Source of the DNA: Burkholderia pyrrocinia
GTDB lineage: Bacteria; Pseudomonadota; Gammaproteobacteria; Burkholderiales; Burkholderiaceae
Length of the DNA stretch: 64,000 nt
NCBI RefSeq assembly: GCF_001028665.1
Contig: NZ_CP011505.1
Coordinates: 620,001-684,000, forward strand
Reading direction: 5' to 3'
The notes below the pieces were generated by a model. It made no database searches. It saw nothing but the letters and a program-made list of their open reading frames with translations, and was not told the DNA's origin. The position numbers and the translations under genes are program-made. This document shows positions 11,095 through 46,606 of the stretch, piece by piece. Positions within the stretch are counted from its first letter, which is position 1; each line of letters opens with the position of its first letter.

Positions 11095-11598
11095 ATGTCA
11101 CGCATTACCGATGTGCTCGTCTCGATCGACACCGAAACCATTCTGAAAAATTATCCGAATCCCAGCAGGAATCCGAATAGTCCGACGCTGATCGACTGGA
11201 AGCACGTGTACATGGTCACGAACCAGGACAACGTGGTGTCCGGGCAGGCGGGCGGCGAACTCGACCTGAAGGCGCAGGTCGGCGACCTGATCCGCTGGCG
11301 CGAAACGAGCCTGTCGCTGGGCTTCGAGAAACAGGTGGTCTTCTACGGCTTCATCGCCAACCAGGGCAAGGACCTGATTTCGACACCCACGCCGCGCAAG
11401 GCCACCGCATCGGTTCCGATTCCGAACCCGAGCTCGCCGTCGACGCCGACCTGCCAGAAGATCGACAACTATTACTGGTCGTCGGAAACGCTGTCGGAAG
11501 GGCGCGTCACCTACCACTTCTACTTCCAGATCATCGACCGCAACTGCCAGTCGCTGGGCTGCTACCAGTGGGATCCGTTCATCTCGATCCACAACTGA
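11095..11598 (+). CDS. AidA/PixA family (inclusion body) protein
   Basis: This 167-residue cytoplasmic-type protein has no signal peptide. It matches the AidA/PixA family by ITDVLVSIDTETILKNYPN, a PTLIDWKHVYMVTNQDNVVSGQAGGELDL block, DLIRWRETSLSL, YYWSS, and a C-terminal ISIHN-type strand. PixA forms inclusion bodies in Xenorhabdus. AidA in Burkholderia is quorum-sensing regulated and needed for slow killing of nematodes. The start follows CGGGAG. The lectin-fused paralogue begins 65 bases downstream and probably shares the transcript. Confidence 0.85.
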   Translation: MSRITDVLVSIDTETILKNYPNPSRNPNSPTLIDWKHVYMVTNQDNVVSGQAGGELDLKAQVGDLIRWRETSLSLGFEKQVVFYGFIANQGKDLISTPTPRKATASVPIPNPSSPSTPTCQKIDNYYWSSETLSEGRVTYHFYFQIIDRNCQSLGCYQWDPFISIHN

Positions 11599-11663
11599 TC
11601 GCGGCAGGCGGGCGGCCGCGCCGCGGTCGCCCGCGTCATTCCCTTGTTGCGGAGGAAGCGACC

Positions 11664-12554
11664 ATGTCTGGTCTTCGTTGCGATGTGCTCGCAATCGTCG
11701 ATGCCGTCACGCTGCTGTCGGCCTACCCCGATGCGAGCGGGAACGCCGACGCGCCGACCGTGATCGACGGCCGGCACATCTACGTGGTGAGCCCCGGCGA
11801 GACCGGGCAGCTCGGCCACAACGACAGCCGGCTCTTTGCCGGCCTGTCGCCGGGCGACCAGCTCCACCTGCGCGAAACCGCGCTGGCGCTGCGTGCCGAG
11901 GTGAGCGTGCTGTTCGTCCGGTTCGCCTTGAAGGACGCCGGCATCGTCGCGCCGATCGAACCGGAAGTGCGCGACGCCACCACGCCGGTGCCGAATGCCG
12001 ACGACCTGCTTCATCCGCCGTGCCAGCCGATGAAAGACCACTACTGGCGCAGCGACGTGCTCGCCGCGGGCACCACCACGTGTACGGCCGACTTCGCCGT
12101 GCTCGACCGCGACGGCGCCGTGTTGGCCTATTTCCGCTGGGAAACGTCGGTCGAGATCGCCGGCAGCCGGCCGGATACGAAACAGCCCGGCTTCAAGCCG
12201 TCGTCGGACCGCAACGGCAACTTCAGCCTGCCGCCGAATACCGACTTCAAGGCGACCTTCTACGCGAATGCCGCCGACCGGCAGGACCTGAAGCTGTTCA
12301 TCGACGACGCGCCGGAACCGGCCGCGTCGTTCGTCGGCAATGGCAACGACGGCGTCAGGCAGTTCACGCTGAACTCGAAAGGCGGCAAGATCCGCATCGA
12401 CGCATCGGCCAACGGCAGGAAATCCGCGACCGATGCGCGCCTCGCGCCGCTGTCCGCGGGCGACCAGGTGTGGCTCGGCTGGCTCGGCGCCGAGGACGGC
12501 GCCGACAGCGACTACAACGACGGGATCGTCATTCTTCAGTGGCCGATCACCTGA
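11664..12554 (+). CDS. AidA/PixA-like protein fused to a C-terminal LecB/BC2L-type calcium lectin domain
   Basis: This 296-residue, two-domain protein starts at an ATG preceded by GGAGGAAG. Residues 1 to about 165 are an AidA/PixA domain (CDVLAIVDAVTLLSAYPD, PTVIDGRHIYVVSPG, LRETALAL, HYWRSD). Residues about 183-296 match Burkholderia BC2L-A and Pseudomonas LecB. Calcium ligands equivalent to LecB N21, E95, D99, D101, N103 and D104 are present as N202, E277, D281, D283, N285 and D286 in EDGADSDYNDG. The sugar-specificity loop is A203-A204-D205, close to the mannose-preferring BC2L-A loop. The protein ends WPIT rather than WPIG or WPLG, so the terminal glycine whose carboxylate binds calcium across the dimer is a threonine. 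No signal peptide is seen, as for other BC2L lectins. Confidence 0.88.
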   Translation: MSGLRCDVLAIVDAVTLLSAYPDASGNADAPTVIDGRHIYVVSPGETGQLGHNDSRLFAGLSPGDQLHLRETALALRAEVSVLFVRFALKDAGIVAPIEPEVRDATTPVPNADDLLHPPCQPMKDHYWRSDVLAAGTTTCTADFAVLDRDGAVLAYFRWETSVEIAGSRPDTKQPGFKPSSDRNGNFSLPPNTDFKATFYANAADRQDLKLFIDDAPEPAASFVGNGNDGVRQFTLNSKGGKIRIDASANGRKSATDARLAPLSAGDQVWLGWLGAEDGADSDYNDGIVILQWPIT

Positions 12555-12584
12555 GCGTCCGGGCGTCATCACCGCGTGCCGCGC

Positions 12585-13523
12585 TCAGGTGCGCGGCAGC
12601 CCCGGCGGATTGGTCTGCGACCGGTCGACCGCTTCGGCGTCGAGGCTCCAGCGGCCGAGCACTTTCCGGTAGCTGCCGTTCGCGATCAGCGCATTGACCG
12701 CGAGCGTCAGCGGATCGGCGAGGCCGCTGCCCTTGCGCGTCGTGATCGCGATGTCCGCGGTGCGCGGCCAGCCGCCGCTCACGGTGCCGATGAGCTTCGC
12801 ATCGCCGCGCAGCGACGCCTGGTACGCAAGCATCGAATTCACGCTGAAGATCGTGTCGACGCGGCCCGACTGCAGCGCGACCCAGCGCTCCGCCGCATCG
12901 GCGTAGTACTGGATCTCGACTGGTGCGAGGCCGCGCGCGACGTTCTGCCGGTTCCATTCGAGCAGGATCTTTTCCTGGTTCGTGCCCGAATCGGTCACGA
13001 CGCGCAGCCCCGCGACGTCCTTCGGCTCGCGGATCGCGGTTATCCGGCTGCTGGTTTTCACGTAGAAGCCGAGCTGATCCTTCCGGTAGGTCGAGAAGTC
13101 GAATTTTTCCTTGCGCTGCTCGGTGACCGTCACGTTCGAGATCACCGCGTCGACCTTGCCGGACTGCAGCGCGAGCGGCCAGTCGGCCCACGCGAGCGGC
13201 ACGATCTTCAGCTTGCGCCCGGCGCTGTCCGCGATGAGCTGCGCGAGATCGGGATCGAAGCCGACCACCGTCCGCGCGTCGGTCGCATACGTGCTGAGCG
13301 GCGGCAGGTTCGGCGCGATGCCGATCGTCAGCGTGTTCGCTTCGGCAAACCTGAAGCCGCCCGGCAACGCCTGCTCGACCGCCGGGTTCACGGTGCCGCG
13401 CTGCCGGCCGGGCTGCTCGGGGCTCAGGTCGAACGTCGCGGCCTGTGCGGCGACGCTGCCGCCGATCAGCACGGCGGCCAGCATCCGAACGACGCGTGCA
13501 ACGGGAAATGCTGTTCTTGTCAT
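12585..13523 (-). CDS. Amino-acid-type ABC transporter periplasmic binding protein
   Basis: This 312-residue protein has a Sec signal (MTRTAFPVARVVRMLAAVLIGGSVAAQA) and an SBP_bac_3 fold: LTIGIAPNLPPLSTY, VVGFDPDLAQLIAD, LVPLAWADWPLALQSGKVDAVISNVTVTEQRKEKFDFSTYRKDQLGF read as the usual core (with IVPLAW here), and a GLRVVTDSGTNQEKIL hinge. The start at 13521-13523 has AAGGAA upstream. No permease or ATPase gene is adjacent, so it either uses a distant ABC transporter or acts as a binding or sensing protein. It lies about 110 bases downstream of the oxygenase gene in the same direction. Confidence 0.87.
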   Translation of the reverse strand: MTRTAFPVARVVRMLAAVLIGGSVAAQAATFDLSPEQPGRQRGTVNPAVEQALPGGFRFAEANTLTIGIAPNLPPLSTYATDARTVVGFDPDLAQLIADSAGRKLKIVPLAWADWPLALQSGKVDAVISNVTVTEQRKEKFDFSTYRKDQLGFYVKTSSRITAIREPKDVAGLRVVTDSGTNQEKILLEWNRQNVARGLAPVEIQYYADAAERWVALQSGRVDTIFSVNSMLAYQASLRGDAKLIGTVSGGWPRTADIAITTRKGSGLADPLTLAVNALIANGSYRKVLGRWSLDAEAVDRSQTNPPGLPRT

Positions 13524-13631
13524 GTTTGACGGGTTCCTTCTTGTTCGATGATGCATTGGGCGAACGCGAGTCGCGGCAGCGCGATGATCGACGCTGGAAT
13601 ACGCAGCCACCGCCCCGCGTTCCCGGCCCTC

Positions 13632-14753
13632 TTACGCGGGCGTCGCTTCGAGTTCGGCCGCAGCGGTGCGCTGAGGCGCCGGCTGCGCGACCGGCGACGG
13701 GCGCGTCGCTTGCGACGATTCGCCCGCATACAGCGCCTTCGGATCGAACACACGCGCCTGCAGCGGCGTAAACGCGCGGAAATTCCACAGGCTGCGCGCG
13801 ACGAACACGCGCTGCACCCAGCGGAACGCGCGGTCGTTCTCGTCGTATTGCGGATCGAAGCGGTCGCGCGAATGCAGCGTGAAATGGTTGTTGATCAGCA
13901 CCAGCTTGCCCGGCGACACCTGCACGCCGAACGACACCTCGCGCACCGCGCGATACAGGTTGGCCAGCGCTTCCTGCGCACGCGTATTGACCGCCAGCAC
14001 CATGTCCGGATAGAACGCGACCGTCACGCGCGGCGCATCGAGCGGCCCCGACAGCACGGCGCTCAGGTCGGTGTTGTCGCGCGGCGTCGGCGCCGCGCCG
14101 CGCCACCGGTACGGCACGCGGATGATGTAGTGCTCGCCGTAGAGCTGCGCGATATCGTCCGGCGACAGCAGTTGCAGCGCGCGGCGCGCATCCGCGAGCC
14201 GCGTGTACGGGCCGCCGCCGGCTTCGCTGCGCACGCCGAGCAGCAGCAACGCGAACGGCGACGTGTCGCCTTCGGGCATGTGCGCCTGCGCGGCATTCTC
14301 GATATGGAAATCCAGCTCGACCTCGGAGCCGAGGCCCGTGTATTCGCGCGCGGTCGTCTTGTGCGGCGTCAGGTTGTTCACGAGCTCGCGGCCTTCGTGC
14401 GCGATCGAATACGGCTCGCCGGCCAGCGTGCTCAGCGCGACCAGTACGTTCTCGCTCAGCACGCCGGACTTGAACGAGCGGCCGGTCTCCTCGAACCTCG
14501 GGCTGCCGTTCACATCGCCGTCGATCGGCAGGTTGTCGATCTCGATCGACCCGTGCGCGTCCGCGGTCGGCGCCTTCGCGCGGTCGAAGGCGTCGACGAT
14601 CCGGTCGGGAAACGCGTTGTAGGCCAGCTTGCGGACTGCGCTGATGTAGCCGGCGCCGCCGGCGGGATCGTAAGCGAGCGCGCCGAGCGTCTTCCGGATG
14701 TGACCGGACTCCACTGCCGTCAAGACGATACGTTCATCTGCAAGGTAGGTCAT
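13632..14753 (-). CDS. Fe(II)/2-oxoglutarate oxygenase, TauD/clavaminate-synthase-like (amino-acid hydroxylase type)
   Basis: This 373-residue enzyme belongs to the clavaminate synthase-like group that includes VioC and AsnO, which hydroxylate free arginine or asparagine. The iron ligands appear as the HxE pair in ELDFHIENAAQAH (near residue 155) and the distal histidine in NNHFTLHSRDRF, followed by the arginine that holds 2-oxoglutarate in DRAFRWVQRVFV. A proline/alanine-rich tail of about 35 residues follows. The substrate cannot be read from sequence; a free or carrier-bound amino acid is likely. It is transcribed divergently from the MFS exporter and two ATP-grasp genes. Confidence 0.82.
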   Translation of the reverse strand: MTYLADERIVLTAVESGHIRKTLGALAYDPAGGAGYISAVRKLAYNAFPDRIVDAFDRAKAPTADAHGSIEIDNLPIDGDVNGSPRFEETGRSFKSGVLSENVLVALSTLAGEPYSIAHEGRELVNNLTPHKTTAREYTGLGSEVELDFHIENAAQAHMPEGDTSPFALLLLGVRSEAGGGPYTRLADARRALQLLSPDDIAQLYGEHYIIRVPYRWRGAAPTPRDNTDLSAVLSGPLDAPRVTVAFYPDMVLAVNTRAQEALANLYRAVREVSFGVQVSPGKLVLINNHFTLHSRDRFDPQYDENDRAFRWVQRVFVARSLWNFRAFTPLQARVFDPKALYAGESSQATRPSPVAQPAPQRTAAAELEATPA

Positions 14754-15194
14754 AGGTCTCTCGTAAAAAGATCTTGGGTCGAAGTGCGGTGGGCACCACC
14801 GCCGCGCTTTGCCGTCCTCGGTGCGAAGCGCTCGACAAGACTAGGAGACCGTCATTGCATTGCGAAATGATATTAAATCGATTGCTAACAAAAATTAGCG
14901 ATATAAGTTCAGCAATTCCGACCGCACCATGTTGCGTCTCTCGCGCCGGTCCTTAACACGAATGCTTGTTAAAAAATCACTGGTTATTATTTGTATTCGC
15001 TAGCGGGTCGATGCTAGTTTTCTGTCGGATTCGACGATGCGGCTCGCTTCGATGGGCAGCCGCCCCCTCATCCGCCAACCGGGAACTCGCCATATGAACC
15101 GATACCGCCTGCTGCGCTGCTTCTTCGGATACGCCGGATGCGACGCTTCGCCGCCGGCACGCCGCCTCGCGACCCACGCGGCGCGGGGGCAGCA
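14754..15194. promoter_or_regulatory. AT-rich divergent control region with GCTAA-N6-TTAGC dyad
   Basis: The 440-base region between the oxygenase (minus) and the MFS gene (plus) is much more AT-rich than its surroundings from 14860 to 15010. At 14884-14899 there is a perfect dyad, GCTAA-CAAAAA-TTAGC, of the T-N11-A type bound by LysR regulators. It is a candidate site for the LysR protein encoded at 17999-18874. No protein gene is evident in it. Confidence 0.45.
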
Positions 15195-16622
15195 ATGAGC
15201 GAACGCGTTCCGGCGCTCGACAGCGCACTGGCCGCCGCCGCGCCGCCGCATCGCTCGTCGCTGCGTACGATCTTCCCGACCGTCGCGGCCGCGAGCCTCG
15301 GCTTCGCGATCGTCCAGCTCGACGTGACCGTCGTCAACGTCGCGATTCCGAGCCTCGGCCATTCGTTCGGATCGAGCGTCCACGGGCTGCAGTGGATCGT
15401 CGATGCGTACACGCTGTCGTTCGCCGCGCTGCTGCTGACGTCCGGCACGCTGGCCGACCGCTTCGGCAGCCGCCGGCTGTTCGCGTACGGCCTCGCGCTG
15501 TTCCTGTTCGCGTCGCTCGGCTGCGCGCTCGCGCCGTCGCTCGCGGCGCTGATCGCCGCGCGTGTCGCGCAAGGCGTCGGCGCTGCGATGATCCTGCCCA
15601 CGTCGCTCGCGCTCATCACGCATGCTTGCGCGAACGACACCGCCGCGCGCGTGAAGGCCGTCGCGTGGTGGAGCGCGACCGGCGGTGCGATCAGCGCGGC
15701 CGGGCCAACGCTCGGCGGGCTGCTGATCGATTCGCTCGGCTGGCGCGCGATCTTCTTCATCAACCTGCCGATCTGCGCGGCCGGGCTGTGGCTTACGCTG
15801 CGCCACGTGCAGGATTCGGCCGCCGCGCGCACGCGGCTGTTCGATCCGGCCGGCCAGATCGTCGCGGTGCTCGTGCTCGCACTGCTGACGGGCGGGATCA
15901 TCCGGGCCGGCGCACATGGGCCGGGGGACCCATATGCGGCCGGCGCGCTGGTTGCATCGGTCGTGCTCGGCGCGCTGTTCATCGCGATCGAGCGGCGCGT
16001 GGCCGCGCCGATGCTGCAGCTCGCGTTCTTCAGGATCGCGCGCGTGCCGGGCGTGCTCGCGATCGGTGCGGTCACGAATGCCGCGTTCTACGGGCTGATC
16101 TTCTCGCTGAGCCTCTATTTCCAGAACGCGCGCGGCTTCACGGCAACCGAATCGGGGCTCGCACTCGCGCCGCTCACGATCATCATGCTCGCCAACATCG
16201 CGAGTGCGCGGCTCGCCGTCCGGTACGGATTCCGCGCGACCGTCATCGTCGGCCTCGGCGTATCGCTCGCGGGCTACGTGTGGCTGTGGCAAACGCTTGC
16301 AGCGCACACGCCGTATGCACTGCTGGCGCCCGGGCTCGCGGCGATGGCGATCGGCGGCGGCATCGCGATTCCCGCGCTGACGTCGACGATGCTCGGCAGC
16401 GTCGAAGCCGGCCGCTCGGCCACCGCGTCCGCGATCCTCAATACCGCGCGCCAAGTCGGCGCCGCCGTCGGCGTCGCGGCGCTCGGTGCGCTGGTCGCGG
16501 GCCAGGGCGCGGCGATCGTGGCCGGTGCGTCGCGTGCGTTTGCCGTCGCGGCCGCGCTCGTCGCCGTGTGCATCGTGCTGGCCGCGCGCTGGCCCGGCGA
16601 CGCGCCGGACGCCGGCACGTGA
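15195..16622 (+). CDS. MFS drug/metabolite exporter, DHA2 (14-TMS) type
   Basis: This inner-membrane proton-driven exporter is about 475 residues long. The start chosen is MSERVPAL after GGGGGC. An ATG-free extension of 19 codons upstream is open but lacks family character. DHA2 motifs are visible: LDVTVVNVAIPSLGH (motif D1), GTLADRFGSRR (motif A) and LPTSLALITH after GVGAAM. Fourteen hydrophobic stretches can be counted roughly. The gene is followed by an ATP-grasp ligase gene after 58 bases, so the exporter probably removes the product of this cluster. Confidence 0.88.
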   Translation: MSERVPALDSALAAAAPPHRSSLRTIFPTVAAASLGFAIVQLDVTVVNVAIPSLGHSFGSSVHGLQWIVDAYTLSFAALLLTSGTLADRFGSRRLFAYGLALFLFASLGCALAPSLAALIAARVAQGVGAAMILPTSLALITHACANDTAARVKAVAWWSATGGAISAAGPTLGGLLIDSLGWRAIFFINLPICAAGLWLTLRHVQDSAAARTRLFDPAGQIVAVLVLALLTGGIIRAGAHGPGDPYAAGALVASVVLGALFIAIERRVAAPMLQLAFFRIARVPGVLAIGAVTNAAFYGLIFSLSLYFQNARGFTATESGLALAPLTIIMLANIASARLAVRYGFRATVIVGLGVSLAGYVWLWQTLAAHTPYALLAPGLAAMAIGGGIAIPALTSTMLGSVEAGRSATASAILNTARQVGAAVGVAALGALVAGQGAAIVAGASRAFAVAAALVAVCIVLAARWPGDAPDAGT

Positions 16623-16680
16623 TCCTGAGCACGTGCCGCCCGCCTCTTTTCAACCGATCCCACAGCCGAGCGAGGAATCC

Positions 16681-17949
16681 ATGCAGCATCGCTTCATCGA
16701 TACCGTCCTGATCGTCGACGGCGCGTCGACGGCCGCCTATCTGGCGCCCGCGTTTCGCGCATACGGCATCCGTTGCGCGCACGTGATCAGCGACCCCGAT
16801 TTGCCGGAAATCTACCGGAACCAGTTCGTCGCGTCCGACTACATCCGCCAGGTCCAGCATCGCGGCGACCTCGACGCGACGCTCGCGCAATTGAGCGACC
16901 TGCGGATCGGCGCGGTGCTGCACGGCCTGGACGCGGCGCTCGAACTCGCCGACACGCTGGCCGAGCGGCTCGACGTGCCATATCGCAACAACCTCGCGAC
17001 GTCGGCCGCGCGACGCGACAAGTTCGCGATGAACGAGCGCATCCGCCAGGCCGGCCTGCGCGCACCCGCGCATTTTCACAGTACGTCGGTCGACGAAACG
17101 CTCGCATGGGCACGTGCGTACGGCACGCTGCCGCTCGTGGTGAAGCCGGCGCGCAGCGCGGGCGTAGCCGGCGTGAAGATCTGCCGGACGCTCGAGCAGG
17201 TCGAGCACGCCGCGCGCGACGTGCTGGCCACCCGTTCGCTGTACAACCAGCCGAACGACGACATCGTGATCCAGAGCTATTCCGAGGGGCAGGAATACAT
17301 CGTCGATTCGGTGTCGTTCGAGGGCCGCCATCGCGTGGTCAGCCTGTGGGAGGTGCATCGCGACCGTACGCACGCGCCGCGGCTCGACAAGATGCTGGTG
17401 CTGAACCATGCCGACCCGCGCTACGCGCCGCTGCTCGATTACGCGGCCGACGTGCTCGATGCGCTCGACGTCCGCTTCGGGCCGACCCATCTCGAACTGT
17501 TCGATACGGCCGACGGCCCGACGATCGTCGAACTGAACGCGCGGCTGCACGGCAGCCTCGACCCGCGGCTGACGAGTGCGGTCAGCGGCGAGAATCACGT
17601 GTCGGCCGCCGTCGAAGCCGTGCTGCATCCGGAGCGGCTGTTCGGCGAAGCCGCCGCGCCGACGGATTTTCGCGGCTACTGCGGACACGTGCTGCTGCTG
17701 TCGTCGCGCAACGGCGTGCTCGCGCAGGACTTCACGTGGCAGGCGATCCAGGCGCTGCCGTCGTTCGTCGGGCTGAAGCAGTGGATCAAGGTCGGCGACA
17801 CGCTGCGCGTGACCACCGACCTGCAGACGGCGCTCGGCACGGTCGGCCTCTACAGCCCGACGTTCGAGCGGCTGCTCGAGGATTGCCGGCGCATCCGCGA
17901 AATCGAGGCCGATTTCTTCGCGGACGAACGCGCCGTCGCGCTGGCGTAG
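16681..17949 (+). CDS. ATP-grasp domain ligase (first of two)
   Basis: This 422-residue cytoplasmic enzyme starts MQHRFIDTVLIVDG after GAGGAAT. It has a Rossmann-like preATP-grasp domain (residues 1 to about 110), then the grasp fold with LPLVVKPARSAGVAGVKICRT, the metal-binding segment FGPTHLELFDTADGPTIVELNARLHGSLDP and a C-terminal domain. It resembles ATP-grasp proteins that make amide bonds through acyl-phosphates, such as L-amino-acid ligases of the BacD type. The substrate is unknown. It lies just after the MFS gene, probably in one operon. Confidence 0.82.
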   Translation: MQHRFIDTVLIVDGASTAAYLAPAFRAYGIRCAHVISDPDLPEIYRNQFVASDYIRQVQHRGDLDATLAQLSDLRIGAVLHGLDAALELADTLAERLDVPYRNNLATSAARRDKFAMNERIRQAGLRAPAHFHSTSVDETLAWARAYGTLPLVVKPARSAGVAGVKICRTLEQVEHAARDVLATRSLYNQPNDDIVIQSYSEGQEYIVDSVSFEGRHRVVSLWEVHRDRTHAPRLDKMLVLNHADPRYAPLLDYAADVLDALDVRFGPTHLELFDTADGPTIVELNARLHGSLDPRLTSAVSGENHVSAAVEAVLHPERLFGEAAAPTDFRGYCGHVLLLSSRNGVLAQDFTWQAIQALPSFVGLKQWIKVGDTLRVTTDLQTALGTVGLYSPTFERLLEDCRRIREIEADFFADERAVALA

Positions 17950-17998
17950 CGTTGCTGGCACCGCGCGCCCGAGCCCTCGAGTTCCCGCTTCTCCGGCG

Positions 17999-18874
17999 CT
18001 AGCGCGCGAGCAACGCCCCCGCCTGCCGGCCCAGCACCGCGCGCAATGCGTCGAGTTCGGACAGCGCGGGCGCTTCCTCGGGCGTGACGAGGTAGGTCGT
18101 CACGCTGTCGAGATCGTCGAACGCGTGCGCGCGCAGTTCCTTGCGGGCCACGTGTTCGGTGGTGATCCGCTTCGGCAGGATCGCGACGCCCATTCCGGCC
18201 GCCACGCAGCCGAGGATTGCGCCGAACGTGCCGAACGACGACACCGATTCGATCGCGAACCCGCGCGCCTTCAGCCAGTGCTCGGCGACCGCGCGATACG
18301 GGCAGCCGTCGTGAAACGCCAGCAGCCGCACCGTGCTGTCGGCCAGCAATTGGCGGCGCGTGACCGTGGCCGCGCTCACCAGCACCATGTCCTCGGCGAA
18401 CGCGGGCTCGTAGCGCAGCCCCGGCCGGACGACCGCGCGCGCGGTGAGCGCGGCGTCGATCCGGCCGCGCAGCAGCGCGTCGGCCAGCTCCGGTTCGCTG
18501 CCGATCTGCACCGCGAGGCCGAGTGCCGGATCGTGCGCCTTCAGCGCGGCGGCGAGCGCCGGCAGCCGCGTGGCCGCCGTGCTTTCCATCGAACCGAGCC
18601 GGAAGCTGCGTGCGACCGGCGTCTCGCGCACCACCTGCGTCGCTTCGTCGACGAGGCGCAGGATGCGGTCGCAATACGGGATCAGCCGGCGCCCGGCTTC
18701 GTTCAGCACCAGCCGCTTGCCGTGCCGGTCGAACAGCGGCGCGTCGAGCGACTCTTCGAGCTGGCGAAGCCGCGCGGTCACGTTCGACTGCGTGCAGCCG
18801 AGCCGTTCGGCCGCGCGCAACGCGCTGCCTTCCTGCACGACGGCCCGGAAGGTTTCGAGCAGAGGTATGTTCAT
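17999..18874 (-). CDS. LysR-family transcriptional regulator of the oxygenase/ATP-grasp cluster
   Basis: This 291-residue protein has an N-terminal winged helix-turn-helix (LLETFRAVVQEGSALRAAERLGCTQSNVTARLRQLEESLDAPLF) and a C-terminal effector domain. It is encoded opposite the flanking genes, between the first ATP-grasp gene and the BASS transporter gene. Its own start faces the transporter across 78-170 bases, the common arrangement for a LysR protein that controls its divergent neighbour. The effector is unknown. Confidence 0.9.
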   Translation of the reverse strand: MNIPLLETFRAVVQEGSALRAAERLGCTQSNVTARLRQLEESLDAPLFDRHGKRLVLNEAGRRLIPYCDRILRLVDEATQVVRETPVARSFRLGSMESTAATRLPALAAALKAHDPALGLAVQIGSEPELADALLRGRIDAALTARAVVRPGLRYEPAFAEDMVLVSAATVTRRQLLADSTVRLLAFHDGCPYRAVAEHWLKARGFAIESVSSFGTFGAILGCVAAGMGVAILPKRITTEHVARKELRAHAFDDLDSVTTYLVTPEEAPALSELDALRAVLGRQAGALLAR

Positions 18875-19041
18875 ATCACCTTCTCTTGTTACTGATCCAG
18901 TTTATATCATTTTACTTCGCGAATCATCGGGATTAGCCTAGCGGACATTCCATGCTGGCCGGCCCCTTTCCGAGGAATCCGCATGTCATCCGCTGTCTGT
19001 TCCGGCTTCACCTCCGTGCGCCGTCGGCGCGAGGCTTGCCC

Positions 19042-19986
19042 GTGCGTGCACTGATCGCCGCACTGGTGCGGCGCGGCCCGACCGTGCTCGCGTGCGGCGT
19101 CGGCCTCGGTCTGCTGATTCCGCCGCTCGCGAACCTCGCACGGCCGCTGATGCCCGTTACCGTGTTCCTGTTCGTGCTCGGCACGCTGCTGCGCGTCGAA
19201 CCGAGCGCCGTGCGCGCGGTCGCGCGGCGGCCGGCCGTGTCGCTGCTGCTGCCCGCCGCGACGATGATTGCCTGCCCGGTCGCGCTCGGCATCGCGGCGC
19301 GGCTCGCCGGCATGCCGGACGAGTGGGTCGTCGCGCTGGTGATCGCGTACTGCGCGCCGCCGTCGAGCGGTACGTCGACGATCGCGCGGATGCTGTCTCT
19401 CGACGCGAGCGTCGCGCTCGTCGCGACCCTCGCGTCGATGGCGTTCGTTCCGCTCACCGCGCCGCTGCTGACGGCCTGGTTCAGCCATGATGCGGCCGTG
19501 TCGATCTCGCCGTTGAGTCTCGCGTTGCGGCTCGCGCTGCTGATCGGCAGCGCCGAAGGCGTCGCGCTGCTCGTGCGGCGGCTCGCCGGCTCGCGGCTCG
19601 ATCGCTATGCGACGACTATCGACGCGATCGTCGTCGTCGCACTGCTGGTGTTCGCGCTCGGCACGATGGCCGGCATGCAGCAGTCGATCATCGATGCGCC
19701 GCAGCGCGCGTTGAGCGCGATCGCACTCGCGTTCGCCGTCAACGCGGGCTTCCAGATCATCGCGTACGGGCTCACGCCCGGCGACGTCCGCACGCGGCTC
19801 AATGTCGCGCTGATCGTCGCCAATCGCAATGTCGGGCTGATGTGGGCCGCGCTCGGGCTCGCGGCCACGCCGACCATGGCGCTCGTGTTCACGTGCGCGC
19901 AACTGCCGATCTACACGCTGCCGCGCGTCGTCCAGCACCTGCTGCCGCGCCTCGAAGCGCAGCGCCTGCGCAGGCGTGCACGCTAG
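19042..19986 (+). CDS. Bile acid:sodium symporter (BASS) family transporter
   Basis: This membrane protein is about 314 residues long with nine or ten hydrophobic segments. BASS features include GLGLLIPPLANLARPLMPVTVFLF near the start, AYCAPPSSGTSTIARMLSLDASVALVATLASM in the centre and VANRNVGLMWAALG in the second repeat. The start chosen is GTG at 19042 with GAGG seven bases upstream. An ATG at 18952 would add 30 residues without membrane or family character. BASS members also carry organic acids and amino-acid derivatives, so this could import a precursor or export a product. Confidence 0.82.
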   Translation: MRALIAALVRRGPTVLACGVGLGLLIPPLANLARPLMPVTVFLFVLGTLLRVEPSAVRAVARRPAVSLLLPAATMIACPVALGIAARLAGMPDEWVVALVIAYCAPPSSGTSTIARMLSLDASVALVATLASMAFVPLTAPLLTAWFSHDAAVSISPLSLALRLALLIGSAEGVALLVRRLAGSRLDRYATTIDAIVVVALLVFALGTMAGMQQSIIDAPQRALSAIALAFAVNAGFQIIAYGLTPGDVRTRLNVALIVANRNVGLMWAALGLAATPTMALVFTCAQLPIYTLPRVVQHLLPRLEAQRLRRRAR

Positions 19987-20028
19987 CCGGCACCGCCCCG
20001 CTCTCCCGTCCTCGATCAAGGATCCAGC

Positions 20029-21237
20029 ATGAAGCGACTCATCGTGATCGGCGCACGCGCCACCGGCAGCAGCCTCGCACTCGTGCGTGCCGCCCTCGCG
20101 CGCCAGGTGGCCGTGACCGTCGTCACCGCGCCCGGCCATCGTCTCGACGGCGTGTTTCCCGACGGCGTCGAGACTATCAACCTCGAACCCGACGCCGGCC
20201 AGCTCGCCGGCTGGCTGCGCACGCGTTTTCAGGGTGAACTCGACACGCTGCGCGTGACGACCGCCCACGACACCTATGCGCGCACCGCCGCGTGGGTCGC
20301 CGACGCGCTCGGCCTGCCCGGCCCCGATGCACGGCACGTCGCGCACGCGGTATCGAAGTCGAACCAGAAGGCCTTGCTCGCCGCGCACGGCATCCCCGCC
20401 GCGCAATTCGTCACGGGCACGCTGGGCGCGCCGGCAGCGCTCGCCGCCGCGGCCGCCCCGTTGCGTTTTCCGGTCGTCGTCAAGCCGTCGGAGGGATCGG
20501 CGAGCGATGGCGTCCGGCGCTGCGAGGACATCGCCGAAGTGCGCGCGCAACTCGACGCGCTCGCCGCCGCGCAAACCGATGCGCGGACGCTCGCGACGGA
20601 GCGCGTCGTCATCGAGGAATTCCTGAGCGGCAGCGAATACTGCGTCGAGTATTTCGACGGCCGCTACGTCGGCGCGCTGCGCAAGCTGAAGCGGCATGGC
20701 GCCGGCTTTCTCGAACGCGGCTATACCTCCGAACTCGATCTCGATGCCGACACGCTGCGCGCGCTGATCGACGTCGGCACGCGCGCGACCGCAGCCGCCG
20801 GGCTCACGTGGGGGCCCGTGCATCTTGATTGCATCGTGCACGACGGCGTGCCGCACGTGATCGAACTGAATCCGCGCATCGCAGGCAGCTTCATCTGCGA
20901 CATCGTGCGCGACGGATACGGCTTCAACGTGGTCGATGCATTGCTCGACAAACTCGACGGACGGACGGTGACGATTCCCGAACTGTTCGAGCCGCACGCG
21001 TATGCGCGCGCCGAATTCCTGCTCGACAGCGATCCGCGCGCGTGGCGTTTCGCGCAGGCTGGCGAGATCAACGACGGCGCAGTCACGATCAGTTACGGGC
21101 CGCAAGTGTTGCCGGATCGCGAACGGCGCGCGTTTCTTTATGTGCGTGTCGCGTCGCCGGCCGCGCACGAGGTGGCGAAAAGGCCGGGCTCATCGACCGA
21201 TAGCGGCGACGTCCGGCAGCCGACGCCGGCCGGATAG
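20029..21237 (+). CDS. ATP-grasp domain ligase (second of two)
   Basis: This 402-residue enzyme starts MKRLIVIGARATGSSLALVRAAL. Like the first copy it has a preATP-grasp domain, then FPVVVKPSEGSASDGVRRCE (nucleotide loop), ERVVIEEFLSGSEYCVEYF and the metal-ligand segment GPVHLDCIVHDGVPHVIELNPRIAGSFI. It resembles carbamoyl-phosphate-synthetase-like and amino-acid ligase ATP-grasp proteins. It follows the BASS transporter gene after 42 bases. Two non-identical ligases in one cluster would allow two successive couplings. Confidence 0.82.
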   Translation: MKRLIVIGARATGSSLALVRAALARQVAVTVVTAPGHRLDGVFPDGVETINLEPDAGQLAGWLRTRFQGELDTLRVTTAHDTYARTAAWVADALGLPGPDARHVAHAVSKSNQKALLAAHGIPAAQFVTGTLGAPAALAAAAAPLRFPVVVKPSEGSASDGVRRCEDIAEVRAQLDALAAAQTDARTLATERVVIEEFLSGSEYCVEYFDGRYVGALRKLKRHGAGFLERGYTSELDLDADTLRALIDVGTRATAAAGLTWGPVHLDCIVHDGVPHVIELNPRIAGSFICDIVRDGYGFNVVDALLDKLDGRTVTIPELFEPHAYARAEFLLDSDPRAWRFAQAGEINDGAVTISYGPQVLPDRERRAFLYVRVASPAAHEVAKRPGSSTDSGDVRQPTPAG

Positions 21238-21573
21238 CGCGTCGGCCAGCGCGGCTGGACGGGAGCGGTACGCCCTCCCGTCCAGCCGGTACTCGGCGTC
21301 TATGGGCAGCTCGCGGCCCCGTCCGCCGGAAAATGGGTCGTCAGTTGCTCCGAACGAACATACGCGCATGCTCCAGATCCAGCATCACAGGTCGGATCGC
21401 GGCACGAAGCCGTTCCGTTCATGGAAGCAGTTCGGTTCGCTGCCGCGCAATGCGTCGACGCGCAGGCACCTGCGTTGCGCATTCGCCTGCGCAAAAATCT
21501 CACGCGGCACGGCGGCGCCAATGCCCTTTGAGCACGCGCTTCCCGCACACGCACGGCGCTCCCGATCGCCGCC
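21238..21573. other. Intergenic stretch without recognised gene
   Basis: This 336-base gap lies between the convergent ATP-grasp and histidine kinase genes. Frames open on both strands show no protein-family character. No strong hairpin with a T-run was found. Confidence 0.5.
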
Positions 21574-23343
21574 TCACGCCCGCTGCGCCAGCGCCGCCGC
21601 GTTCGCGTTGTCGCGTGCCCGCCGGACCGGCAGCCGCACGCAGAACGTCGTGCCGCGCCCGGGTTCGCTCGTCACGTCGATTGCGCCGCGATGGCGCTCG
21701 ACGATGCCGTGCGATACCGACAAGCCAAGCCCCGTTCCCTGCCCGACCGGCTTGGTCGTGAAGAACGGATCGAAGATCCGCCGGACGACGTCGGGCGACA
21801 TGCCCGTTCCGGTGTCGCTGATCGCGATCGACACCTGTTCGCCCTCGCTCGACGTGCGGATCGTGATGACGCCGCGCTCGGGAATCGCCTGCACCGCGTT
21901 GACCAGCAGGTTCATGAATACCTGGTTCAGTTGCGACGGCAGGCATTCGACCTGCGGCAGGTCGCCATAATCGCGCACGATGTCGGCCTTGTACTTGAGT
22001 TCGTTATGAACGACGTTGAGCGTGCTCTCGAGGCCCGCGTGGAGATCGACCACGCTCCACTCGTCGCTGACCGGGCGCGAGAAATCGCGCAGGTCCTGCA
22101 CGATGCGCCGCACCCGCACCGCGCCATCGATCGATTCGTCGATCAGCGTCACGATCTCGTCGCGGACGTAGTCCAGATCCGCCGCGCGGCCCATCGCCGT
22201 CAGCGCATCGCGGGCGGCGGGGTCGAGCTGCGGCAGCACGGCCTCATGCGCCGCGACCACGTCGAGCAGGCTTCGCACCCAGGTCTTCAACGTATTGAGG
22301 TTCGCGCTGACGAAGCCGATCGGATTGTTGATCTCGTGCGCGACGCCCGCCGCGAGCTGGCCGATCGACGCGAGTTTTTCCGACTGCAGCAACTGCACGT
22401 GGGTTTCCTCGAGCGCATGCAGCAGGCGCCGCTGTTCCTCCCGCTCCTGTTCGAGCCGTGCCTGTGCCGCCTTGCGTTCGTCGATCTCGGTCGCCATGTT
22501 CTCGCGCGTGCGCTGCAGCATCTCCGTCGACTGCTCGTAGCGATGCAACGCACGCTCGAGTTCGGCGGTTCGCATTTTCACGAGCCGTTCGAGCGTGTCG
22601 GTCATCCCGCGCAGAAAGGTTGTGCGCGCATCGAAGCGGCTGAGCAGCAGCGTGACGATCAGCGTCGCCATCGTAAACAGCGCGACGGTCGTCGCGAGCC
22701 ACGGCGCGTCGATCCCGTTCGCGGCGCCGCATCGAACGTCCGGCGCAAAATGGGCGGCCGCCATCCCCGTATAGTGCATGCCGGTAATGGCGATGCCCAT
22801 GATGACGGCCGCGCCGACGCGTTGCGCGGTCGCATGACGTGCCTGCTGCGCGCGCAGCGCCTGCGCAATCCATAGCGCGGCGGTCGATGCGATCACCGCG
22901 ATGCCGATCGATGCGGCGAACAGCGCGGGATCGTAGCGAATGCCGGGTTGCATGTGCATCGCAGCCATCCCCGCGTAGTGCATGCCGGCAATCCCGCCGC
23001 CCATCAGCGCACCGCCCGCGAACAGTCGCCGCCAGCCCAGCCGCGCTCGCGTGACGACGTTCAGCGCGAAATACGACACGAGCACGGCGATCGCCAGCGA
23101 TGCGCCCGTGTCCGGCAGTGCATAGCCGAGCGGGATCGGCAGCGAGAACGCGAGCATGCCGACGAAATGCATCGACCAGATCCCGGTTCCCATCGCGGCC
23201 GCGCCGCCGCCCAGCCACGCACGCTTGAGCTTCGGGTTGTCGAGCAGCGAAATGAACGCGGCCAGATCGAGCGTCGTATAGGAAGCCAGCGTCGCGATGG
23301 CGAGCGACAGCAGGACGAGCGGGAGATTGTAGGTGCCGTGCAT
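21574..23343 (-). CDS. MHYT-domain membrane sensor histidine kinase
   Basis: This 589-residue inner-membrane kinase starts MHGTYNLPLVLLSLAIA, the standard opening of MHYT sensors. Seven helices carry the repeated metal-binding motif as WSMHFVGM, AGMHYAGMAAMH and TGMHYTGMAAAH. MHYT domains are proposed to bind copper and sense O2, CO or NO. A long coiled-coil stretch follows, then the dimerisation box AAGVAHEINNPIGF with the phospho-accepting histidine, and an ATPase domain with NLLVNAVQAI, SDTGTGM, IFDPFFTTKPVGQGTGLGL. It lies 84 bases downstream of the HD-GYP response regulator gene, which should be its partner. Confidence 0.92.
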   Translation of the reverse strand: MHGTYNLPLVLLSLAIATLASYTTLDLAAFISLLDNPKLKRAWLGGGAAAMGTGIWSMHFVGMLAFSLPIPLGYALPDTGASLAIAVLVSYFALNVVTRARLGWRRLFAGGALMGGGIAGMHYAGMAAMHMQPGIRYDPALFAASIGIAVIASTAALWIAQALRAQQARHATAQRVGAAVIMGIAITGMHYTGMAAAHFAPDVRCGAANGIDAPWLATTVALFTMATLIVTLLLSRFDARTTFLRGMTDTLERLVKMRTAELERALHRYEQSTEMLQRTRENMATEIDERKAAQARLEQEREEQRRLLHALEETHVQLLQSEKLASIGQLAAGVAHEINNPIGFVSANLNTLKTWVRSLLDVVAAHEAVLPQLDPAARDALTAMGRAADLDYVRDEIVTLIDESIDGAVRVRRIVQDLRDFSRPVSDEWSVVDLHAGLESTLNVVHNELKYKADIVRDYGDLPQVECLPSQLNQVFMNLLVNAVQAIPERGVITIRTSSEGEQVSIAISDTGTGMSPDVVRRIFDPFFTTKPVGQGTGLGLSVSHGIVERHRGAIDVTSEPGRGTTFCVRLPVRRARDNANAAALAQRA

Positions 23344-42986: not shown

Positions 42987-43084
42987 CGCTTGCGCGGAGG
43001 ATCGCAGTGGTTGACGACTTGCCGGATCGAACCTGCGTTTCGATAGCCGGTATCCGAGCGTAGCCAACGCTCGAATGTCCACCT

Positions 43085-43325
43085 GAGAGCATTGGCGAAC
43101 GGCCACATGTGACCAGCGGCCGCCGTTCCTGATCACCGGCAACTGGCCGCACGGCGTACCTCGCGCTTGAATGTCCGGACCGTGGGTAAACTCGGGCGAC
43201 CAAAGCAACTTCCCCCGGTCACATGAGCACGCAACCCACCGACGTACCTGCTAACGTCACCCCAATGATGCAGCAGTACCTGCGCCTTGCCTGACAAGGA
43301 TCAGCCCGAAAAGCTACGCCAAGAC
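43085..43325 (+). repeat. mutS-leader repeat copy B
   Basis: A 98-base core (43185-43282) is identical to copy D and 12 bases different from copy C. It contains an ATG at 43223 that encodes MSTQPTDVPANVTPMMQQYL, the expected N-terminus of a beta-proteobacterial MutS, then RLA and a stop. Weaker similarity to the other copies extends about 45-100 bases upstream (ACTGGCC, CGGCG). Downstream it shares CTGACAAGG and TACGCCAAGACCTACGC with copy C. There is no MutS body. Confidence 0.8.
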
Positions 43326-43391
43326 CTACGCTCACCCTTTTCAGAATCTGTCGTTAGCCGAAAAGGGCATGGCATCGAACGTGTCACAATC

Positions 43392-43754
43392 ATGCGTCGT
43401 CGCGAAAAACCAACTGGGCAACTTGTGAAGTCACTACTCATTCTGGTTGCATTAACAGGCTTGTCGGTCGTTTCGACAGCGCAGGGACAGAACGCTGCGA
43501 CTCTCATCGGGTTATCAAAGGACCTATCTAGGCATATGAATGGCCCGGACGGCGAGTACGGGTTCATTCGTGTCGAGACGCCTCACTGCCGTCAGTTTGG
43601 ACTGGGAGCCAGCGACGATCTGCCACCTCCAAATCAATACCGTTTCGTAGATTTTAGTCACGCGCAGAATGCGAACGTCGATACGCGCGGAGTGACGTTT
43701 ACGATGCGGTCAATACCTTTGCCCTGGTGCAAGCCGGGCGAAGGTATGTACTAA
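43392..43754 (+). CDS. Small secreted hypothetical protein
   Basis: This 120-residue protein starts MRRREKPTGQ and has a signal peptide (LVKSLLILVALTGLSVVSTAQG). The mature part contains HMNGPDGEYGFIRVETPHCRQFGLGASDDLP and two cysteines near the ends (PHC and WCKPGEGMY), which could pair in the periplasm. I do not recognise a family. It lies between repeat copies B and C. Confidence 0.65.
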   Translation: MRRREKPTGQLVKSLLILVALTGLSVVSTAQGQNAATLIGLSKDLSRHMNGPDGEYGFIRVETPHCRQFGLGASDDLPPPNQYRFVDFSHAQNANVDTRGVTFTMRSIPLPWCKPGEGMY

Positions 43755-43849
43755 TGGTCCGTCTCTGATATTTTGTGATTGCTTGTTCGTTGTCTAGCGT
43801 CGCGAGAGTTTGGAAACGCTTGGCTGCCGCTCACCATCTCCCGCACCTG

Positions 43850-44040
43850 GCCAAACGGCGAACTTCGCGCGTGAACGCCGAAGCCACTGGTAAACTCGGG
43901 CAGCCAAAGCAACTGTTCCCGGTCACATGAGCACGCAACCCGCCGCAGCACCTGCCCCCGTCACCCCAATGATGCAGCAGTACCTGCACCTTATCTGATA
44001 AGGCTCTGTGAACAAACCTACGCCAAGACCTACGCCCGCC
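43850..44040 (+). repeat. mutS-leader repeat copy C
   Basis: The 98-base core is 43889-43986. The ATG at 43927 encodes MSTQPAAAPAPVTPMMQQYL, then HLI and a stop. It differs from B and D at 12 of 98 bases, mostly in the variable stretch after MSTQP, so the copies are not a recent duplication. Downstream it shares TACGCCAAGACCTACGC with copy B. The 27-bp inverted-repeat element begins 26 bases later. Confidence 0.8.
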
Positions 44041-44065
44041 TTTTTGAGGATCGTCCGCTAACGAC

Positions 44066-44144
44066 TGCGGATTCAACCCGTCGATGCAACACTCCTCGCT
44101 GCTATGCAGCCTCAAGTGTGTTGCATCGACGGGTTGAATCCGCA
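44066..44144. mobile_element. 79-bp element with perfect 27-bp inverted repeats
   Basis: The arms 44066-44092 and 44118-44144 (beginning TGCGGATTCAACCCGTCGAT) are perfect reverse complements. The 25-base interior holds a smaller palindrome, GCTGC-TAT-GCAGC. A degenerate relative lies at 33552-33611. It carries no gene, and it could fold as one long cruciform or hairpin. It may be a MITE or a solo end pair of an IS30-like element; the family is uncertain. Confidence 0.7.
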
Positions 44145-44269
44145 ACCCTGAAGAGACAGTCGCGGAAAGCGAAAGCGGACATTCGCATCGTCGTTAGGCG
44201 CGAATCTGTCCTATTGGGCTCGGCGTCTATCTTGCCTAAATTCCAGAGCGCCTGAATCGCCGTCCCTGA

Positions 44270-44833
44270 TCACGGCGTGACAGGCAGTTGCTTCCATGCG
44301 CCGGCTATGCGTCGGTACAAGTGAGGGAGCAGTCGATGGTCGCAATCCCCGGACCGCTCTACGACTTGCCGAAGTTCCACTAACCCTTGTGCGGAAGATG
44401 AGTCGCAGAATGCAAGGAGGTCACGCGCTGGAGCAACCGCGACAAAGCCCTGTGGGGCGACATGGGCATACCAGTGATTCCACATGGCATCAAGCGTGAG
44501 AAGACTCGCCTCGAAGTTACCTCCCATGAGTGCAACATACATGGAACCGTACTCGCGAACAACCAGCTTTTCTTCCGCAAGAGTCTGCAAATTTGAAACG
44601 GCGATTGAATGAAGCTGATCAGCCGAAACACACTCCTGTTCCAGATGCCGGTGCTGAACGAAAGCCAAATGATCAGATGCGTCTACGACATACGAAACCA
44701 ATAGGTCGTCACTTAGAGGACGGAGAACAGGCGAGTCCTCGCCTGACAACGATATTGCTGGCGTTGAGTCTTGCACCAAGGGCTTCAGATAAGCGATGGC
44801 GCGGGCACAGATGCCGCCTTCTCTCACGGTCAT
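44270..44833 (-). CDS. DUF1444-like protein, possibly 5'-truncated
   Basis: This 187-residue soluble protein starts at MTVREGGICARAIAYL. It includes SPVLRPLSDDLLVSYVVDASDHLAFVQHRHLEQE then SADQLHSIAVSNLQTLAEEK, which fits the core of DUF1444 (YtpQ-like) proteins. The usual N-terminal third is missing and the ATG has no good ribosome site, so the gene may be truncated; an open stretch of the minus strand at 44848-45045 ends in a stop just before it. DUF1444-like proteins are often found near polymorphic toxin loci, so an immunity role is possible. Confidence 0.65.
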   Translation of the reverse strand: MTVREGGICARAIAYLKPLVQDSTPAISLSGEDSPVLRPLSDDLLVSYVVDASDHLAFVQHRHLEQECVSADQLHSIAVSNLQTLAEEKLVVREYGSMYVALMGGNFEASLLTLDAMWNHWYAHVAPQGFVAVAPARDLLAFCDSSSAQGLVELRQVVERSGDCDHRLLPHLYRRIAGAWKQLPVTP

Positions 44834-45064
44834 AGGGCGATATTCAATCAATCCGAAAATACTGCTAGAACCATCCTCGGAGGATGGTCAACGATTCGGG
44901 TCGTGATGTCGAATGGCTGGTTGTGGCCGAACGCGGCCGGCCGCCACCCCGCGACGCGGTCAGCACATGCTGCCATGACCAGACCTTCGCCCAGTTCTAA
45001 AGGAAATGCAAAGCGTCGAGGAGCATCCTGCTTCCACTCCGTCAAAGCCCGCAGCGCTTCGCTG

Positions 45065-45277: not shown

Positions 45278-45438
45278 ATATCCCCCGGCTGATCTGTTTG
45301 ATCTAGTGTGTCGTCGATAGACGGTTATCAGGCGACGGCGAACCATTTTGTTGGTATGCGCCTTTGAGATGCTCGCGAGGGCAATTGTGGACGAATTGAG
45401 TCACGGTGTCGAACGACCGTTCATGGCCGGCCTCGTCC

Positions 45439-46440: not shown

Positions 46441-46606
46441 GGCAGCTTCCCGTGCGTCAGTTTGAAGACTTCGATTCAATACGCGCGAAGATTTTCGACG
46501 ATCTACTGGCCTACACGCAATCAGAAACGATCCGGACTTCGGCGCCAGATTTACCTTTCAACGTCCGCCCTTGACCGAAGCCCGACGCATCTCGCTGTGG
46601 CCGCGT

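What the first reader, a model, noticed from the sequence alone, without database searches (positions are those of the whole stretch)
12585..21237. Candidate uncharacterised small-molecule cluster: oxygenase, two ATP-grasp ligases and transporters
An amino-acid-type Fe(II)/2-oxoglutarate oxygenase, two different ATP-grasp ligases, a DHA2 exporter, a BASS transporter, an amino-acid binding protein and a LysR regulator lie together around one AT-rich divergent promoter. Oxygenase plus ATP-grasp ligase plus exporter is the logic of hydroxylated-amino-acid dipeptides or related antimetabolites (compare bacilysin-type L-amino-acid ligases). No NRPS or PKS gene is present. The cluster also sits beside quorum-sensing-type AidA genes.
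Basis: inference. Interest (0 to 1): 0.75.

Follow-up and report, generated by a model that had tools for sequence, protein, structure and literature searches.

The report
Uncharacterised NRPS-free peptide biosynthesis gene cluster
A small set of genes kept together from Burkholderia to Pantoea plasmids probably oxidises a free amino acid, most likely an acidic one, links it into a short peptide without the usual giant enzymes, and exports it; no product is known, so it is a well-supported lead for a new natural product.

Summary
Window 12585-21237 carries an SBP, a clavaminate-synthase-like Fe(II)/2-oxoglutarate oxygenase (OXY), a DHA2-type MFS, ATP-grasp ligases AG1 and AG2, a LysR regulator and a distant BASS-type transporter. 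It is a real cluster: OXY, AG1 and AG2 share one contig in 24 of 65 Burkholderia genomes, and OXY-MFS-AG1-AG2 recurs, reordered, in Paraburkholderia, Robbsia and on Pantoea plasmids. Selection is purifying. A promoter palindrome occurs once in the 7.96 Mb genome and, in 65 genomes, only in cluster-bearing ones (23 of 24). No NCBIfam housekeeping cut-off shown is reached by either ligase. OXY lacks AsnO's pocket Asp and has the PYR[A/V]+Tyr signature of a group predicted to take acidic amino acids. Best reading: a free Glu/Asp-like amino acid is oxidised, joined into a di- or tripeptide, and exported. Pantoea and one B. cepacia strain add BioF-like and FMN-monooxygenase genes. AidA is a neighbour, not a part. 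Product and activity are unknown; the searches made found no paper on it, but identity of the Pantoea form with PNP-3 was not tested.

The parts
12585..13610 (-). SBP: periplasmic amino-acid-type solute-binding protein, downstream of OXY (start probably near 13523); its neighbours are AidA-like and OXY, not ABC transporter genes
   Evidence: PF00497 92.8 bits; matched in 14 of 14 Burkholderia loci L001-L013 and L015, not in the Paraburkholderia and Robbsia stretches and not annotated beside the Pantoea and Rahnella clusters
13632..14753 (-). [quoted passage not shown]
   Evidence: TauD 39 bits against 27; nearest solved structure asparagine oxygenase, E 1.5e-17; H150, E152, H294, R311, R315 in 117 of 117 rows
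14754..15194 (.). Divergent OXY/MFS promoter region with conserved AT-rich blocks
   Evidence: alignment of 15 sequences
14953..14972 (.). Palindrome TTAACA-N8-TGTTAA, candidate operator; cognate regulator unknown
   Evidence: once in the 7.96 Mb genome; in 23 of 65 genus genomes, all cluster-bearing; the reversed control pattern is in 2 of 65; the 24th cluster genome has one changed arm base
15195..16622 (+). MFS: DHA2-type exporter (mechanical ORF begins at 15138)
   Evidence: MFS_1 159.9 bits; efflux_EmrB 201.5 bits, below its cut-off of 230.2
16681..17949 (+). AG1: ATP-grasp ligase, DdaF/PRK07206-like
   Evidence: PRK07206 310.5 bits against cut-off 302; DdaF 211.9 against 840; L-amino acid ligase 30vh E 9e-52
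17999..18874 (-). LysR-type regulator, nearest PtrR
   Evidence: PutUtilRegPtrR 198.6 bits against cut-off 400; a 56% relative stands next to a 72% OXY in L074
18952..19986 (+). BASS-like transporter (distant member)
   Evidence: SBF 22.4 bits, below cut-off 24.3; solved transporters E 4e-5; 59% relative near the Paraburkholderia cluster
20029..21237 (+). AG2: second ATP-grasp ligase, nearest NCBIfam model PRK02186 (N-terminal part)
   Evidence: ATP-grasp_4 64.1 bits; PRK02186 149.7 against cut-off 625; L-amino acid ligase BL00235 E 3e-16

Best explanation
The locus is a compact, NRPS-independent biosynthetic gene cluster for a small exported peptide. OXY oxidises (most simply beta-hydroxylates) a free amino acid with an acidic side chain, Glu or Asp or a larger acidic relative. 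AG1 and AG2 activate carboxylates as acyl phosphates with ATP and form one amide bond each, giving a di- or tripeptide that contains the oxidised residue. The DHA2 protein exports it. LysR probably controls the genes; SBP and the BASS-like protein probably handle uptake or sensing of the precursor or product. Shown: gene content, cross-genus conservation, purifying selection, intact metal-binding and pocket residues in OXY, a cluster-specific palindrome. Inferred: amino-acid substrate (from the family and the conserved alpha-amino and carboxylate contacts), acidic side chain (from published modelling of the same pocket type), peptide product (ligase homology), export, regulation.
For: Co-occurrence: OXY in 25 (E<=1e-20), AG2 in 24 (E<=1e-30) and AG1 in 25 (E<=1e-20) of 65 genus genomes; the same 24 have all three on one contig, 22 of them with OXY to AG2 within 7.8 kb. 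The four-gene core OXY, MFS, AG1, AG2 is kept with changed order in Paraburkholderia bryophila (L014), Robbsia andropogonis (L016) and on plasmids of Pantoea alfalfae, P. agglomerans and Rahnella sikkimica (identities measured on L081; the Rahnella AG1 copy is interrupted). AG1 and AG2 identities co-vary over 13 clusters (Mantel r 0.68, 0 of 5000 permutations as high; in nine of the 13 'same cluster' rests on equal longest-contig lengths). Median dN/dS 0.08-0.26 over 13 loci. OXY: metal triad, Glu120 (aligned with the alpha-amino Glu of AsnO and KDO1), R311 and R315 in 117 of 117 rows; P214, R216 and Y248 in 117, A246 as A (98) or V (19), which is the PYRA/V + Tyr motif of group G6 that PMC6224419 supposes to take Glu or Asp (section read). 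Best solved relatives of the ligases are L-amino acid ligases. In 65 genomes the palindrome occurs only in cluster-bearing ones.
Against: No product, activity or expression data. P13 is Tyr in 94, His in 20 and Phe in 3 of 117 rows, so the motif is not uniform. Close OXY relatives lie in stretches without AG1 or AG2 matches (Trinickia L017 70%, L074 72%, L076 48%), so OXY may serve other pathways too. AG2 is not congruent with AG1: window and Paraburkholderia group on AG1 but not on AG2 (modest support and long branches). The palindrome does not have the spacing of a canonical LysR T-N11-A box (recalled rule), so its regulator is unassigned. The cluster is rare at large: AG1 (E<=1e-90) in 1 of 399 genomes of the order draw, AG2 (E<=1e-40) in 1 of 369 of the class draw, each time only the query genome.
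Confidence: 0.55

Rival explanations
1. The core in the window is the stripped-down remainder of a larger Pantoea-type pathway: the complete product needs the third ATP-grasp, the BioF-like alpha-oxoamine synthase and the NtaA/DmoA-type FMN monooxygenase, and most Burkholderia make only an intermediate or nothing useful.
For: Pantoea and Rahnella plasmids carry OXY-MFS-AG-AG-AG-AOS-FMO in one direction. B. cepacia LK29 (L015; L091 is taken as the same record by its contig length) has AOS and FMO plus a 567-residue protein without a Pfam or NCBIfam match after AG2.
Against: Low dN/dS in all seven genes and conserved promoter blocks argue for use as they are. Of the loci held when one search ran (the 80), AOS and FMO matched at E<=1e-20 only in L015, so not in the Robbsia and P. 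bryophila stretches. In 65 genus genomes 4 have an AOS match at E<=1e-60, but only 1 at 54% identity; the others are 38-41%, as expected for an optional addition.
Confidence: 0.2
2. The genes form a nutrient or detoxification system: BASS, SBP, LysR (PtrR-like) and OXY import and oxidise an acidic compound, and the ATP-grasp enzymes conjugate it, with the MFS removing the conjugate.
For: LysR resembles the putrescine-utilisation regulator PtrR. A 72% OXY stands next to LysR, an SBP, an MFS and an aspartoacylase-type gene in L074, without ligases. SBP and BASS are uptake-type families.
Against: In Paraburkholderia, Robbsia and Pantoea the constant set is OXY + exporter + two ligases; neither SBP nor LysR matched in L014 and L016, and in Pantoea and Rahnella a TetR gene precedes OXY while an annotated LysR gene lies several kb away (not compared with the window LysR). 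Distribution is patchy (24 of 65) and partly on plasmids, as for secondary metabolism.
Confidence: 0.15
3. OXY is an ordinary asparagine oxygenase and the product is a 3-hydroxyasparagine peptide.
For: AsnO is the best solved match (E 1.5e-17, profile 1e-28), and several sources name relatives 'L-asparagine oxygenase'.
Against: The position aligned with AsnO's side-chain Asp (P15) is Ala or Val in 117 of 117 rows, and the lid is PYR, not PPS.
Confidence: 0.1

Closest known systems
Clavaminate-synthase-like (CSL) amino-acid oxygenases, group G6 of PMC6224419
   Same: His-Glu-His triad, two Arg, Glu at the alpha-amino position, PYR[A/V] lid and pocket motif, Tyr at P16
   Different: the passages and section read give G6 only a predicted substrate and no gene context; the figures and supplements were not seen
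AsnO, asparagine oxygenase (2og5)
   Same: nearest solved structure, shared triad and alpha-amino Glu
   Different: side-chain Asp replaced by Ala/Val; lid sequence different
Dapdiamide cluster of Pantoea (DdaF)
   Same: AG1 is a homologue of DdaF (211.9 bits); oxygenase and exporter logic (recalled)
   Different: far below the DdaF cut-off of 840; no NRPS domain among the nine genes scanned
Bacilysin-type and BL00235-type L-amino acid ligases
   Same: ATP-grasp fold; BL00235 is the best solved match of AG2 and second best of AG1
   Different: local matches only; no BacD-family match in the 15 families listed for AG1 nor in the 25 shown of 26 for AG2
Pantoea PNP-1 to PNP-5 and pantocin clusters
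   Same: small Pantoea antibiotic clusters; the relative found here sits on Pantoea plasmids
   Different: PNP-1 and PNP-4 have other genes, PNP-5 is described as holomycin-like (passages); PNP-2 is 6 genes in 5,784 bp. PNP-3 (8 genes, 8,487 bp, 49% GC) is close in size and GC to the seven genes in 8,941 bp at 51% GC here and was not compared by sequence; it is reported from Pantoea only, while the cluster here is also in Rahnella

Membership tests
Clavaminate-synthase-like Fe(II)/2OG oxygenases | His-X-Glu ... His iron triad | tested here: met
   H150, E152, H294 in 117 of 117 rows
Clavaminate-synthase-like Fe(II)/2OG oxygenases | two Arg (P18, P19) for 2-oxoglutarate and substrate carboxylate | tested here: met
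   R311, R315 in 117 of 117; roles after PMC6224419
CSL group G6 | P12-P15 motif PYRA/V and Tyr at P16 | tested here: met
   met by the window protein; family: P214 117, Y215 94 (His 20, Phe 3), R216 117, A246 98 + V 19, Y248 117 of 117; mapping by alignments
CSL group G6 | acts on acidic amino acids | not testable with these tools
   published prediction only
AsnO-type asparagine oxygenase | Asp at P15 for the side chain | tested here: not met
   Ala or Val in 117 of 117
L-amino acid ligase (ATP-grasp) | ATP-grasp domain above Pfam cut-off | tested here: met
   AG1 40.0 and AG2 64.1 bits against 27
L-amino acid ligase (ATP-grasp) | forms a peptide bond between L-amino acids | not testable with these tools
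   homology only
Dapdiamide A synthase DdaF | NCBIfam NF041595 cut-off of 840 bits | tested here: not met
   AG1 211.9, AG2 31.7
NRPS or PKS cluster | condensation, adenylation, carrier or ketosynthase domains | tested here: not met
   none among the nine genes scanned
BASS transporters | PF01758 above gathering score | tested here: not met
   22.4 against 24.3 bits; solved transporters at E 4e-5
Pantoea PNP-3 cluster | sequence identity with MN807451 | not tested
   the record was not fetched; size and GC are similar

The most novel reading that the evidence does not exclude
This is a family of NRPS-free peptide pathways built on an oxygenase type for free acidic amino acids (Glu/Asp or larger) that has only a predicted substrate in the paper seen. 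OXY, AG1 and MFS form the constant part, while the AG2 slot, plus an optional third ligase, AOS and FMN monooxygenase, is exchanged between lineages to vary the second or third residue. The product would be an exported antimetabolite peptide of acidic amino-acid metabolism, shared between Burkholderia and Pantoea plasmids.
Probability: 0.3. Interest if true: 0.72.

Novelty: new variant of a known kind. Interest (0 to 1): 0.56.

Why it matters
Clusters of this kind carry no NRPS or PKS signature and are easily missed (PMC7744662 reports that antiSMASH did not identify several small Pantoea antibiotic clusters; passages read). This one gives a testable substrate prediction for an oxygenase group that has only a predicted substrate in the paper seen, links Burkholderia to Pantoea and Rahnella plasmids, and offers natural variants of the same core for working out ligase specificity.

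Tried and rejected
AidA as a cluster part: rejected; gene 1 matched beside the cluster in 9 of 14 Burkholderia loci and in neither L014 nor L016. Housekeeping role of the ligases: rejected on NCBIfam cut-offs, although fold-level Pfam models named after housekeeping enzymes pass narrowly or clearly. Asparagine as OXY substrate: made unlikely by the P15 exchange. Canonical LysR box reading of the palindrome: not accepted because of its even spacing (recalled rule). sigma-70 scan of 12500-21600: 0 promoter-like sites against 0.6 expected; 5 terminator-like sites against 4.9 expected, so uninformative. E. coli genomes: no match to the two Pantoea ligase genes by blastn. Literature: no paper for locus tags BCAS0286-0291, the tags expected beside aidA BCAS0293 (mapping inferred from gene order; BCAS0285 was not searched); BCAS0294-0299 gave two papers (listing only), not followed because by that mapping they lie on the far side of aidA; no paper with clavaminate synthase + ATP-grasp + Burkholderia or amino acid ligase + ATP-grasp + Burkholderia cepacia complex; the single paper with ATP-grasp + Burkholderia + oxygenase + dipeptide + gene cluster describes other systems in the passages seen. 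Pantoea searches led to the PNP clusters. Identity with PNP-3 was not tested by sequence: size and GC are similar; its reported restriction to Pantoea speaks against it, since the cluster here is also in Rahnella at 92% DNA identity. The structure model and fold search were not possible.
Full report
Setting. The window lies in a 7.96 Mb genome, contig C3; the nearest named OXY matches are Burkholderia species such as B. catarinensis, B. lata and B. cenocepacia. The seven genes of the finding are intact ORFs: SBP 12585-13610 (-), OXY 13632-14753 (-), MFS 15195-16622 (+), AG1 16681-17949 (+), LysR 17999-18874 (-), BASS 18952-19986 (+), AG2 20029-21237 (+). The BASS assignment is weak (below the Pfam cut-off) but is backed by solved transporters at E 4e-5.

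Is it a cluster? In 65 genus genomes OXY is found in 25, AG2 in 24 and AG1 in 25. The same 24 hold all three on one contig. The two extras are G022 with a 72% OXY elsewhere and G060 with a 33% ATP-grasp protein. From the listed coordinates, OXY to AG2 spans under 7.8 kb in 22 of 24; in G058 it is 8.8 kb and in G019 21.8 kb; G019 has further genes between the LysR-BASS-AG2 half and the other half, and the B. lata locus L004 shows only SBP, OXY, MFS and AG1 within its stretch. The table of loci (it replaces, which used a wrong AG1 frame) shows all seven genes in 13 of 14 Burkholderia loci. In a family draw OXY (E<=1e-20) is in 35 of 398 genomes: the 25 above and 10 others, five of them at only 30-35% identity.

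Beyond the genus. Paraburkholderia bryophila has OXY divergent from MFS-AG2-AG1, with a 59% BASS relative nearby; Robbsia andropogonis has OXY-MFS-AG1-AG2 in one direction. Plasmids of Pantoea alfalfae, P. agglomerans and Rahnella sikkimica have OXY, MFS, three ATP-grasp genes, an aminotransferase-fold gene and an NtaA/DmoA-type FMN monooxygenase gene. On the P. alfalfae locus the ATP-grasp genes are 53% to AG2, 51% to AG1 and 43% to AG2, in that order; the aminotransferase-fold protein is BioF-like. The AG1 copy is interrupted by stops in Rahnella. In 65 genus genomes four match the Pantoea synthase at E<=1e-60, one of them at 54% (G061), the rest at 38-41%. A luciferase-like gene (named by eye) in the P. 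bryophila stretch does not match the FMN monooxygenase at E<=1e-20. In the protein searches nine AG1/AG2 pairs share the same longest-contig length, three of them with an OXY of that length too, which suggests the same contig in further bacteria; this is an inference from the listing. OXY and AG2 relatives also bear Klebsiella, Providencia and Pantoea names. In the plasmid collection OXY matched 7 records (three Burkholderia, two Pantoea, Rahnella, and a partial 37.5% Vibrio match) and AG2 6. The cluster is rare at large: AG1 1 of 399 in the order draw, AG2 1 of 369 in the class draw, the query genome only.

Selection and regulation. Median dN/dS against 13 loci is 0.08 (LysR) to 0.26 (SBP); OXY 0.10, AG1 0.12, AG2 0.18. 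The OXY/MFS intergenic region keeps several blocks over 15 sequences. The palindrome TTAACA-N8-TGTTAA (14953-14972) is the only copy in the genome; it occurs in 23 of 65 genus genomes, every one cluster-bearing, and in none of the 41 without the cluster; the pattern read backwards, as control, is in 2 of 65. In G058 it lies about 1.4 kb from the OXY start instead of about 0.2 kb. The 24th, G008, has one changed arm base. The 8 inner bases vary. It has no exact match in L014, L016, L017, L074, L076 or L081, so it marks the Burkholderia form only. Its regulator is not known; LysR is the only regulator in the cluster, but the spacing is not that of a canonical LysR box (recalled rule).

The oxygenase. 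The best solved match is asparagine oxygenase. PMC6224419 (passages, section 12 whole) describes how the clavaminate-synthase-like family reads its substrate: a Glu/Gln at P2 for the alpha-amino group, two Arg at P18 and P19, and a side-chain pocket at P12-P16. In AsnO the pocket is PPSD. Group G6 has PYRA/V and a conserved Tyr at P16, is supposed to take Glu or Asp, and possibly a large substrate. By the alignments the window OXY has P214-Y215-R216, A246 and Y248. Over 117 rows P12, P14 and P16 are invariant, P15 is Ala 98 or Val 19, and P13 is Tyr 94, His 20, Phe 3. The metal triad, the two Arg and Glu120 are invariant. So OXY is a G6-type enzyme with contacts for a free amino acid and no AsnO-type Asp. 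That its substrate is acidic is a prediction.

The ligases. AG1 is nearest to an L-amino acid ligase structure (30vh, E 9e-52) and to DdaF far below its cut-off. AG2 is nearest to BL00235 (E 3e-16). The printed alignments show the usual ATP-grasp motifs (motifs recalled). AG1 and AG2 identities co-vary over 13 clusters, but in trees the window groups with Paraburkholderia on AG1 (99/99) and not on AG2; identities say the same (AG1 72%, MFS 68%, OXY 79%, AG2 47% to P. bryophila). With the long-branch warning in mind, this fits an AG2 slot that is exchanged or diverges more freely.

Mechanism. Most likely a free acidic amino acid is oxidised by OXY, AG1 and AG2 add one amide bond each, and MFS exports the peptide. 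SBP and BASS, present in the Burkholderia form, may bring in or sense precursor or product. Toxicity is not shown.

Known or new. aidA (BCAS0293) and BCAS0292 in B. cenocepacia are strongly quorum-regulated (PMC2753556, passages); the cluster was not among the passages seen, and no paper held BCAS0286-0291. Searches found no description of the cluster. Papers seen: PMC2922099, PMC2753556, PMC4010436, PMC11350110, PMC7744662 in passages; PMC6224419 in passages and one section; all others by listing only. Identity of the Pantoea form with PNP-3 remains untested. I rate it a new variant of a known kind: an NRPS-independent ATP-grasp peptide cluster with an oxygenase type whose substrate is so far only predicted in what I read.

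Noticed in passing
window 11568-12554: The second AidA-like gene encodes a PixA domain followed by a PA-IIL fucose-binding lectin domain; in L006, L008 and L013 only the first ~190 residues matched, so the lectin part may be optional.
   Followed up: partly
L079 6647-15541 (G140): A different cluster: AsnO-like oxygenase, ATP-grasp, methylaspartate mutase E chain and a B12-binding subunit, with MFS-, aspartokinase- and aspartate-semialdehyde-dehydrogenase-like genes (named by eye).
   Followed up: partly
L074 7751-13831 (G022): A 72% OXY next to a PtrR-type LysR, an SBP, an MFS and an aspartoacylase-type gene, without AG1 or AG2 matches.
   Followed up: partly
L078 9644-10344 (G322): Pieces of OXY (75%) and LysR (47%) near fragments that look by eye like diaminopimelate epimerase, radical SAM and Mur ligase genes.
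   Followed up: no
L091 8914-10617: 567-residue protein between AG2 and the BioF-like gene in B. cepacia LK29 with no Pfam, NCBIfam or PDB match.
   Followed up: partly
window 43001-47000 and 63001-64000: Stretches of 51-57% GC in a window of 65% GC; possible acquired DNA.
   Followed up: no
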